The notes beneath the pieces were generated by a model. That model worked only from the letters and a program-made list of their open reading frames with translations, was not told where the DNA came from and made no database searches. From an uncultured Endomicrobiia bacterium (GTDB lineage: Bacteria; Elusimicrobiota; Endomicrobiia; Endomicrobiales; Endomicrobiaceae): DNA of 34,763 nt. Below are positions 17,396 to 34,757 of this stretch, piece after piece. A program made the translations under genes and the position numbers. The first letter of the stretch is position 1. Each line of letters opens with the position of its first letter. The stretch is from the NCBI GenBank assembly GCA_905234925.1, contig CAJOJJ010000004.1, positions 9,717 through 44,479 of the forward strand, in the 5' to 3' direction.

Positions 17396-17860
17396 TTAAA
17401 TTTCTCTGTATGTTGCCACTTCTCCATTTCCTTCAAATATATGAGCTCCTAAAGTAACATTATATTGAAGTATCATACTTGCATTACTTTTCCCTATATC
17501 AGCAGCTTTGAAGGCATCACAAACAAAATAATATTTGAATCTACTATCCCCGCCGGAACCATTTACAGCAAAAATTGTAAAATACTTATTTCCTCTTGCA
17601 TCAATATTTAAAACTGCCTCATAATTAGAATATGTTTTACTACTGGTATCAGAGATTTTTAAAAAATTACCATATTCGGAATAATAATTTTTCTGTGCAG
17701 AGAGTATTTGCCCTAAAAGTGCATACCCTTCAGACATCTTCGCCTTATCGACATAACCTCTGTAAATAGGTACTGAAATTACCGACAAAATTATCACTAT
17801 TGCGATAGTGATGACCAACTCTACCAATGTGAAACCTCTACTTCTTTTTAGGATGTTCAT
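17396..17860 (-). CDS. Type IV pilin-like / PulG-like protein
   Basis: A 154-residue prepilin. Short basic leader MNILKRSRG, cleavage before FTLVEL (G9/F10, Glu at +5), then the hydrophobic helix VITIAIVIILSVISVP. The helix is followed by a PIYRGYVDKAKMSEGYALL segment near-identical to the two other pilins here, and a divergent C-terminal domain. It would be processed by a prepilin peptidase and assembled into a pilus or type II secretion-like fibre; none of that machinery is in the window. The ATG sits in AAATGCTATGAAC: GGAG upstream is closer to the first ATG, which reads ATG-CTA-TGA and overlaps the pilin start. Confidence 0.93.
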   Translation of the reverse strand: MNILKRSRGFTLVELVITIAIVIILSVISVPIYRGYVDKAKMSEGYALLGQILSAQKNYYSEYGNFLKISDTSSKTYSNYEAVLNIDARGNKYFTIFAVNGSGGDSRFKYYFVCDAFKAADIGKSNASMILQYNVTLGAHIFEGNGEVATYREI

Positions 17861-18147
17861 AGCATTTCTCCTTTTTGTTTTTTAGCTGATAAGTTGAGAA
17901 CGAAAAACTTTGTTTTTCTTAGCTGATAGGCTGATAAGTTTGTTGTAAAAATTCACTTTGTGAATTTTTGTTTTAACATAGATTGCGGATCGGAGTCCGC
18001 AATGACAGACACTTAGTGTCCGCAGAGCGGTTGTTATTTGGTTTTCGTTTGTCATTCCGTGCTTGACACGGAATCCATGTTATAAAAGTTCCTTAAACTC
18101 TCAGCTTCTCTGCTTTTCAGCTCTTCAGCTTCTCAGCTGTCTTTGTT
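17861..18147. repeat. Mosaic repeat region upstream of the pilin
   Basis: AGCTGATAAG units, perfect hairpins GAAAAAC-TTT-GTTTTTC (about 17902-17918) and AAAAATTCAC-TTT-GTGAATTTTT (about 17946-17968). Palindromes ATTGCGGA...TCCGCAAT (about 17981-18002) and GTCATTCCGTG...CACGGAAT (about 18051-18074), then AGCTTCTCAGCTGT units. No gene is seen. Confidence 0.7.
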
Positions 18148-18422
18148 TTTTTGGATTATCTGAAAGGAGAGAGCTTTTGTTTCGGCAAATTCGGCTGTCG
18201 GCGTTATTCTTCCATAGCAAAAAAATAACGGCTGATTTATTTCATGGCATCTCAAGCACACAAAATAAACAGCCGTGACTCAATAACCCGCAAAGTGGCT
18301 AATGAATACTTGGAATAAAATATTTAAGTAATGAGCTGAAATATATTATTCCTATTACGTCTGTTTTTGGCTTGAGATGCGTTTTGCTTTCACAAAACTG
18401 CGTCCTTTCGGACATCCAAAAA
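18148..18422 (-). ncRNA. Large structured RNA candidate with a pseudoknot, leader of the pilin or independent RNA
   Basis: A closing helix: 18148-18168 pairs with 18403-18422 (GGAT..CTGAAAGGA with TCCTTTCGG..ATCC). Inside are hairpins CGTTATT/AATAACG (18202-18208/18224-18230), GGCTGATTTATTT with AAATAAACAGCC (18230-18242/18263-18274), GGAATAAAATATTT (18312-18325/18339-18352) and GTTTTG/CAAAAC (18381-18386/18393-18398). The loop GCATCTCAAGC (18247-18257) is exactly complementary to 18370-18380, an 11-bp pseudoknot. A strong minus-strand promoter ends just upstream. I recognise no known class (not tmRNA, RNase P, 6S or SRP by eye). Confidence 0.55.
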
Positions 18423-18460
18423 CATTTATATTAAGTTTTATTTTTTACTTTACAACTTCT

Positions 18461-18489
18461 ATTATAACCGATAACTACATTTCAGTCAA
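18461..18489 (-). promoter_or_regulatory. Sigma-70 promoter of the structured RNA / pilin leader
   Basis: Minus strand TTGACT (18484-18489), 17-nt spacer, TATAAT (18461-18466). Predicted start near 18454, about 30 nt before the structured element and about 590 nt before the pilin ATG. Confidence 0.75.
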
Positions 18490-33455: not shown

Positions 33456-33893
33456 ATGAAAAGATTAAAAGGTTTTACTTTAGTAGAATTGGTAATAACA
33501 ATAGCTATTGTTATTATTCTGTCTGTAATTTCTGTACCTATTTACAGAGGGTATGTTGATAAGGCAAAGATGGCTGAAGTTTATGCCTTAGCAGGAACTA
33601 TTCTTTCAGCACAAAAAAATTATTATTCTGAATATGGATATTTCTATTTTCTTGGTCCTAATTACTATTGGACATCCAATAATATCGACTTAGGTATTGA
33701 TATAAGAGGAAACAAATATTTTACAAGTTTCTTTACTACTGCTCATAATTTAGATATGGCAAAGTATAAATTTTATTCTTACATTATGAAACCGACAGAA
33801 ATACAAGAACCGGGAAAAAGAGTTTTTGGATTTAATTATAACATAACAGAGGGAATACGTTTTGTTGATAGAGATGATACAGGAAATGAATAG
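33456..33893 (+). CDS. Type IV pilin-like / PulG-like protein
   Basis: A 145-residue prepilin. Leader MKRLKG, cleavage before FTLVEL (G6/F7), hydrophobic helix VITIAIVIILSVISVP, then PIYRGYVDKAKMAEVYAL; the C-terminal domain is unlike the other two pilins beyond DIRGNKYFT. AAAGGAGA precedes the ATG. It has its own promoter, operator and leader, and a strong terminator 30 bp after the stop. It is the only pilin on plus here and the only one with a normal promoter region visible. Confidence 0.95.
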   Translation: MKRLKGFTLVELVITIAIVIILSVISVPIYRGYVDKAKMAEVYALAGTILSAQKNYYSEYGYFYFLGPNYYWTSNNIDLGIDIRGNKYFTSFFTTAHNLDMAKYKFYSYIMKPTEIQEPGKRVFGFNYNITEGIRFVDRDDTGNE

Positions 33894-34088: not shown

Positions 34089-34757
34089 TTATAACCAAGA
34101 ACTATCTTTTTCTTGTTTATAAATAATTTTCCCACCCAAAGTAATATTATACTGCAACAAAAACATTGTTTTATTTGGAATCATCAATTCTTGCGGAATA
34201 GCCATATAAGAATGAAAATATTTTTTCAAATCATGCTCAGGAGTAGCAGGACCTGCTTGAAACCAAGTAAAATATTTATTTCCTCTGGCATCTATATTAA
34301 GTACCGTATTATTATCCGTCCATTCTCCACCTTCATAACGACCCAAAAAATTTCCATATTCAGAATAATAGGCTTTTTGTGCAGAAAGAATTGTTCCAAA
34401 CAAAGCATAAGCTTCCGATATTTTTGCTTTATCGACGTATCCCCTGTAGATTGGTACTGAGATTACTGATAAGATAATAACGATGGCAATTGTGATTACA
34501 AGTTCTACCAATGTGAAAGCGGCACGGCTAAAAGGTGTTTTATTAACATCAACAGAACAAACTGCAGATCTCTCGTCGCTTCGCTCACTCGAGATGACAG
34601 GAATGTCTATTTCGGGAATGACAGATGAACTACAACGACACCGGATTGCCACGCCGACTTCGTTGCCTCGCAATGACAACCTGTTTTGGTTGTTGTCGTT
34701 TGTTGTACATTGTACATTATACATTGTACATTTTTGTTTCCTTTCAAGGTTTTTCAT
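34089..34757 (-). CDS. Type IV pilin-like protein with an 80-residue repeat-derived leader
   Basis: A 222-residue frame. Residues 81-222 are an ordinary pilin (FTLVELVITIAIV, then PIYRGYVDKAKISEAYALF, and NIDARGNKYFT). The first 80 residues are open in frame but encoded by dispersed repeats: a TGTACA array (KCTMYNVQCTTN), a GGCAATCC/CATTGCGAG palindrome and a CTCGAGTGAGCGAAG palindrome. The residue before F81 is Ala, not the Gly usually required by prepilin peptidase. No ATG, GTG or TTG lies nearer the helix. The start ATGCTATGAA context equals that of the pilin at 17860, supporting it. Either a functional long leader or a pilin damaged at its start. Confidence 0.75.
   Translation of the reverse strand: MKNLERKQKCTMYNVQCTTNDNNQNRLSLRGNEVGVAIRCRCSSSVIPEIDIPVISSERSDERSAVCSVDVNKTPFSRAAFTLVELVITIAIVIILSVISVPIYRGYVDKAKISEAYALFGTILSAQKAYYSEYGNFLGRYEGGEWTDNNTVLNIDARGNKYFTWFQAGPATPEHDLKKYFHSYMAIPQELMIPNKTMFLLQYNITLGGKIIYKQEKDSSWL
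34566..34735. repeat. Repeat cluster inside the third pilin reading frame
   Basis: CTCTCG...CGAGA (about 34571-34595), GGATTGCC...GCAATGAC (34642-34678) and TGTACATTGTACATTATACATTG (34703-34732). All three families also occur as non-coding spacers elsewhere in the window. Confidence 0.75.

What the first reader, a model, noticed from the sequence alone, without database searches (positions are those of the whole stretch)
18148..18489. Structured RNA of about 275 nt with an 11-bp pseudoknot behind a strong promoter
Closing helix, four hairpins and a loop-to-downstream pairing (18247-18257 with 18370-18380) are exact, and a TTGACT-17-TATAAT promoter stands 30 nt before it on minus. The element ends 290 nt before a pilin gene. 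I cannot match it to a known class. The closing arms could also be terminal inverted repeats of a small non-autonomous mobile element.
Basis: partly seen in the sequence, partly recalled or inferred. Interest (0 to 1): 0.75.

Follow-up and report, generated by a model that had tools for sequence, protein, structure and literature searches.

The report
Pilin-gene leader RNA, a terminator switch
A previously uncatalogued RNA switch sits in front of many pilus genes, and some DNA-modification and surface genes, in gut and rumen Elusimicrobiota; by folding two ways it probably decides whether the gene behind it is read, and each copy carries its own private matching pair of sequences.

Summary
The structured RNA is real. 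It is not a mobile element and matches no Rfam 15 family. It is a leader found 28 times in the window's genome (a rumen Ruminimicrobiellum-like Endomicrobiaceae) and in two families of Elusimicrobiota. I compiled 107 copies. The first gene behind it is a type IV pilin in 54 of 83 cases. The rest include DNA methyltransferases and restriction genes, glycosyltransferases and other surface genes.

Its two arms differ in almost every copy yet stay complementary (all ten aligned pairs show changes on both sides). Its more likely context differs: A lies just before strand b (CCAAAAACAGnCG) and A' just after strand c (CGGCTGTTT..). Strand b can pair with the 5' arm of P1 or with c; c can pair with b or with the terminator strand d, which precedes a T-run. 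So A+b: c+A' is one nested antiterminator helix.

Folding agrees: with the nascent RNA ending at A', the antiterminator is the minimum-energy fold in 104/107; at full length the terminator is in 97/107. Best reading: a bistable, riboswitch-like transcription attenuator. The signal is unknown and nothing has been tested experimentally.

The parts
18461..18489 (-). promoter TTGACT-17-TATAAT
   Evidence: promoter-like sites upstream of 53 of 58 Endomicrobiaceae-type copies, but the shuffled rate is 0.69
18425..18437 (-). conserved unpaired 5' tail AACTTAATATAAA
   Evidence: alignment of 47 copies
18416..18424 (-). strand a, TGTTTTTGG: 5' arm of P1
   Evidence: P1 standard-paired in 100% of cells, 36 sequences
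18402..18413 (-). P2 hairpin, GNRA-type loop
   Evidence: covarying
18381..18398 (-). P3 hairpin
   Evidence: covarying at its base
18370..18380 (-). strand A, copy-specific lock strand
   Evidence: 8-13 nt exact complement downstream in 107 selected copies; 49 of 53 copies found without using A:A'
18358..18370 (-). strand b, CCAAAAACAGACG: pairs with a (P1) or with c (antiterminator)
18312..18352 (-). P4 hairpin
   Evidence: base covaries; loops enriched in palindromes
18277..18309 (-). P5 hairpin
   Evidence: folds of middle domains
18259..18276 (-). strand c, ACGGCTGTTTATTTTGTG: pairs with b (antiterminator) or d (terminator)
18247..18257 (-). strand A', complement of A; loop of the terminator hairpin
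18228..18246 (-). strand d, 3' half of the terminator stem
   Evidence: helix 7
18217..18227 (-). T-run after the terminator
   Evidence: sequence; within 8-26 nt of A' in all 107 compiled copies (a selection criterion)
   Evidence: MFE; match of 7 or more to the P1 arm in 40 of 58 Endomicrobiaceae-type copies against 16% after shuffling
17396..17860 (-). downstream gene, type IV pilin (154 aa)
   Evidence: N_methyl E 1.5e-6; ComP_DUS E 8.6e-6, just below its cut-off

Best explanation
It is the 5' leader of the pilin gene and works as a bistable transcription attenuator. Transcription starts at its own promoter. P1, enclosing P2, P3 and strand A, forms first. When strand c and then A' emerge, c invades P1 by pairing with b, and A' pairs with A; the long helix A+b : c+A' encloses P4 and P5 and withholds c from the terminator. 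A few nucleotides later strand d emerges and competes for c; if c:d forms, followed by the T-run, transcription stops. Whatever stabilises P1 (most likely something sensed by the conserved 5' tail and P1-P3 domain) should favour termination; whatever stabilises the three-way junction of the A+b helix, P4 and P5 should favour read-through. Shown by sequence: the strands, their alternative complementarities, covariation, genomic placement. Inferred: that termination and read-through occur, which state is the default, and that a signal sets the choice. A:A' probably looks hypervariable because it pairs only with itself and one-sided conversion between paralogues would break it, while a, b, c and d have two partners each and stay frozen.
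For: Covariation: 36 copies, 94.4% of cells paired against 82.7% shuffled, score 0.373 against 0.150, 0 of 500 shuffles; all ten A:A' pairs change on both sides. Copies found by the 5' domain alone: 49 of 53 with enough downstream sequence have A' (8 nt or more) about 90-105 nt on (counted by hand; L047 and L048 re-read). In own-genome copies A is 37% identical on average against 81% for the 5' domain, yet own A:A' averages 10.3 of 11 pairs against 4.7 between copies. Prefix ending at A': antiterminator in the MFE of 104/107, P1 in none; full length: terminator in 97/107. Shuffling A' lowers the prefix antiterminator to 68% and nearly abolishes it at full length, 0.65% against 10/107. The two folds differ by only -1.1 +/- 4.1 kcal/mol. 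In the window copy the MFE switches at 58, 173 and 193 nt, with the T-run at 198. The first downstream gene is a pilin in 54 of 83.
Against: No RNA-seq, termination or probing data. Copies for the folding test were chosen for having A:A' and a T-run, so those counts are partly built in; the energy balance and the A' shuffles are not. MFE ignores pseudoknots and kinetics. No ligand or regulator identified. In the own genome repeats often separate RNA and gene by several hundred bases, so tight coupling there is assumed. A minority of pilin genes seem to have it: 28 RNAs against 70 N_methyl hits in a fragmented assembly, and the window's two other pilin genes lack it.
Confidence: 0.74

Rival explanations
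1. A free-standing small RNA about 225 nt long. The terminator always works, A:A' is a true pseudoknot of the finished molecule, and the RNA acts in trans; neighbouring pilin genes are co-inherited by chance or have their own promoters.
For: Own promoter and terminator; the terminator fold is the full-length MFE in 97/107; a wide, repeat-filled gap before the pilin in many own-genome copies.
Against: In most copies the T-run is at most 120 nt from the start codon (66 of 88 with a called gene); strands b and c stay complementary and A:A' extends exactly that helix, pointless for a fixed RNA; no excess third site for A/A' within 400 nt downstream (5.6% against 4.4%).
Confidence: 0.14
2. A/A' are DNA inverted repeats flanking an invertible segment; inversion moves the 5' half of the terminator and switches the gene on (phase variation).
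For: Downstream genes (pilins, restriction-modification, glycosyltransferases, lipoproteins) are classic phase-variable types; locus L029 holds two 5' domains head to head around one middle domain.
Against: Apart from L029, none of the fetched copies is inverted; the exact inverted-junction pattern is absent from all 11 genomes of the genus; the arms share no sequence a recombinase could recognise.
Confidence: 0.04
3. A small non-autonomous mobile element; the closing arms are its terminal inverted repeats.
For: Dispersed, 28 copies in 1.37 Mb; different genes follow in different genomes.
Against: No target-site duplications (8.9% against 5.5% in swapped flanks); always promoter to gene orientation; no match to the exact pattern in viral contigs; structure and its alternatives conserved across two families.
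Confidence: 0.04
4. Locus-specific A:A' is an identity tag: the leader RNAs meet each other (kissing P4 loops) and A:A' keeps each leader from cross-pairing.
For: P4 loops are palindromic far above chance (6-nt: 19 of 43 distinct loops against 2.1); five pairs of copies from different genomes keep the same A while the rest differs by 11-17%.
Against: Cross-complementarity is not lower than in column-shuffled sets; many loops share TAATTA by descent; nothing shows trans contacts.
Confidence: 0.04

Closest known systems
c-di-GMP class II riboswitch before pilA1 of Clostridioides difficile (Cdi-2-4; PMC6366702)
   Same: A leader that ends or continues transcription through an intrinsic terminator before a type IV pilin gene.
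   Different: No match to any Rfam riboswitch model; different architecture; dozens of copies in some genomes; ligand unknown.
Cobalamin (AdoCbl) riboswitches with the L5-L13 kissing loop
   Same: From general knowledge: a sequence-variable loop-to-loop helix couples the sensor domain to the expression platform.
   Different: No Rfam match; here the variable helix is 8-13 bp, can be nested in the antiterminator, and differs among nearly all paralogues of one genome.
Terminator/antiterminator attenuators (T-box, trp/pyr leaders)
   Same: Mutually exclusive antiterminator and terminator sharing one strand.
   Different: No T-box match in Rfam; no leader peptide looked for; the shared strands are nearly invariant while the lock helix is copy-specific.

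Membership tests
Any described RNA family (Rfam 15, including c-di-GMP-I/II, T-box, cobalamin) | covariance-model score at the gathering cut-off | tested here: not met
   no hit in the window; none relevant up to E 10; only two tRNAs in 20 other loci fetched for copies
Intrinsic-terminator attenuator | G+C-rich stem followed by a T-run, upstream of a gene | tested here: met
   helix 7 plus T-run; next gene a pilin. The simple scan misses it because it allows loops of at most 8 nt
Intrinsic-terminator attenuator | a mutually exclusive antiterminator sharing a strand | tested here: met
   (computed folds only)
Intrinsic-terminator attenuator | termination and read-through observed | not testable with these tools
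   no transcript data
Riboswitch | binds a small ligand that sets the fold | not testable with these tools
   no binding data; conserved 5' tail and junction segments only suggest a sensor
Non-autonomous mobile element (MITE) | target-site duplications next to terminal inverted repeats | tested here: not met
   element ends are not sharply defined, so small duplications could be missed
Invertible promoter/terminator switch | both orientations found | tested here: not met
   only the unusual locus L029

The most novel reading that the evidence does not exclude
A phylum-level regulon of surface and DNA-exchange genes in which each gene has a homologous RNA switch with a private lock helix that is kept between orthologues and differs between paralogues, the leaders meeting through palindromic P4 loops, so that near-identical leaders stay individually addressable.
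Probability: 0.1. Interest if true: 0.85.

Novelty: new variant of a known kind. Interest (0 to 1): 0.62.

Why it matters
It would be a large, uncatalogued family of cis-regulatory RNAs in a phylum with little experimental genetics. Pilins are the only cell appendages reported for Endomicrobiaceae (PMC11257099). It links pilin genes with restriction-modification and surface genes under one type of switch, and it is a natural library of about 100 matched helices in one scaffold, useful for studying how antiterminators and terminators compete and how paired strands escape homogenisation among paralogues.

Tried and rejected
Known RNA class: Rfam at gathering and at E 10, negative. Mobile element: no duplications, no viral-contig matches. 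Invertible segment: no inverted copies apart from L029. A or A' pairing with a third site up to 400 nt downstream: not above cross-control; upstream 2.8% against 1.2%, three copies. Selection for orthogonality of A among paralogues: not seen. The E. minutum genome paper is not held.

Full report
OBSERVATION. On the minus strand the finding's features are all present: promoter TTGACT-17-TATAAT (18461-18489), hairpins, the exact 11-nt pairing 18370-18380 with 18247-18257, closing arms, and a pilin gene 288 nt beyond. The 342-nt stretch folds better than every one of 100 shuffles, z -5.1.

COPIES. A DNA search of the window's own genome (1.37 Mb, 106 contigs, 86% complete) gave 27 matches, the best of them covering most of the query. 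A covariance model of the 5' domain (47 sequences, 80 positions) finds 28 strong copies in the own genome, matches in 15 of 77 genomes of the same family, and in 69 of 295 sampled genomes of the phylum; the latter fall in the own family and in one distant family. Named carriers include Candidatus Ruminimicrobiellum caprinum and R. ovillum and many Elusimicrobium/Elusimicrobiaceae gut genomes. Ruminimicrobiellum is an Endomicrobiaceae genus of the rumen (PMC11257099). Of 22 genomes from other phyla with a chance match to the P1 pattern, none has a model hit at E 0.001.

THE VARIABLE PAIRING. Among copies chosen only by their 5' domain, I count 53 with enough sequence downstream; 49 have a perfect complement of strand A, 8-13 nt long, about 90-105 nt on (L047 and L048 were mis-anchored there and re-read). 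In 108 compiled elements the A' strings are 103 different ones, and a string of one copy occurs in another in 0.7% of pairs (one chance match, L149, was dropped afterwards, leaving 107). In 36 aligned copies all ten A:A' pairs show changes on both sides, with up to five pair types each; whole-structure covariation 0.373 against 0.150 shuffled. In the own genome A is 37% identical between copies while the 5' domain is 81% identical.

TWO FOLDS. Folding the segment from b to A' alone showed that CAGnCG, right after P1, pairs with CGGCTG, the 5' half of the terminator. So A+b and c+A' form one nested helix around P4 and P5. Strand b is shared between P1 and this antiterminator; strand c between the antiterminator and the terminator. 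With the transcript ending at A', the antiterminator is in the MFE of 104 of 107 copies and P1 in none; at full length the terminator is in 97 and P1 in 96. Shuffling A' cuts the first to 68% and leaves 0.65% antiterminator at full length. Forced-fold energies differ by -1.1 +/- 4.1 kcal/mol. In the window copy P1 appears at 58 nt, the antiterminator at 173, the terminator at 193, the T-run at 198. These are equilibrium computations without pseudoknots, and the set was selected for A:A' and a T-run.

GENES BEHIND IT. Of 83 first downstream genes of 60 aa or more, 54 match the type IV pilin N-methylation motif; the rest include type III and other DNA methyltransferases, an HsdR-like protein, a helicase/PLD protein, family 2 and 8 glycosyltransferases and lipoprotein-like or other membrane proteins. 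By comparing, 12 of the 28 own-genome copies are followed on the same strand by a pilin, 12 run into a contig end, and 4 (two of them the L029 pair) have no listed pilin.

WHY A:A' VARIES. Similarity of A hardly follows similarity of the rest (rank correlations 0.22-0.26): copies about 90% identical elsewhere have A at about 5 of 11, while five pairs from different genomes keep A (10-11 of 11) with the rest at 83-89%. L049 and L051 share A but have different P4 hairpins. The simplest account is exchange between paralogues that spares A and A', because replacing one arm breaks the pair; this is inference. No sign of selection for orthogonality was found.

OTHER FEATURES. A distal segment resembling TCCTTT..TCCAAAAACA after the terminator matches the P1 arm in 40 of 58 Endomicrobiaceae-type copies against 16% in shuffles, and in 15 of 48 against 7.5% in the other family; it may add a translational layer, since in several copies a CTCCTTT stretch can cover the ribosome-binding site (by eye). 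P4 loops are enriched in palindromes, TAATTA, TCATGA, TTATAA, TTCGAA among others; many are related by descent.

VERDICT. A new family of leader RNAs, best read as bistable transcription attenuators. It works like a riboswitch, but ligand binding is untested, so it is not filed as one.

Noticed in passing
L029 (G000:C15:11692-11950): Two 5' domains, each with its own promoter, face each other around a single middle domain; neither has strand d or a terminator. Could be a real rearrangement or an assembly artefact.
   Followed up: partly
own genome G000: 70 type IV pilin N-methylation hits in 1.37 Mb, many at contig ends.
   Followed up: partly
17880-18147 and the same place in other own-genome loci: Dispersed short repeats (AGCTGAGAAGCTGA..., TGACGAGCGTAGCGATGTCATC...) fill the gap between leader and pilin gene.
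   Followed up: no
L022, L023, L025, L034, L036: Pilins with pre-sequences of tens of residues before GFTLVEL that look like translated repeats.
   Followed up: no
L068 (G010:C15): Two tandem elements with the same A; the second has a degenerate A' and precedes a gene I did not identify by search.
   Followed up: no
P4 loops of 107 copies: 6-nt palindromes in 19 of 43 distinct loops against 2.1 expected.
   Followed up: partly
window 33456-33893 (+) and 34089-34757 (-): Two further pilin genes without this leader.
   Followed up: no
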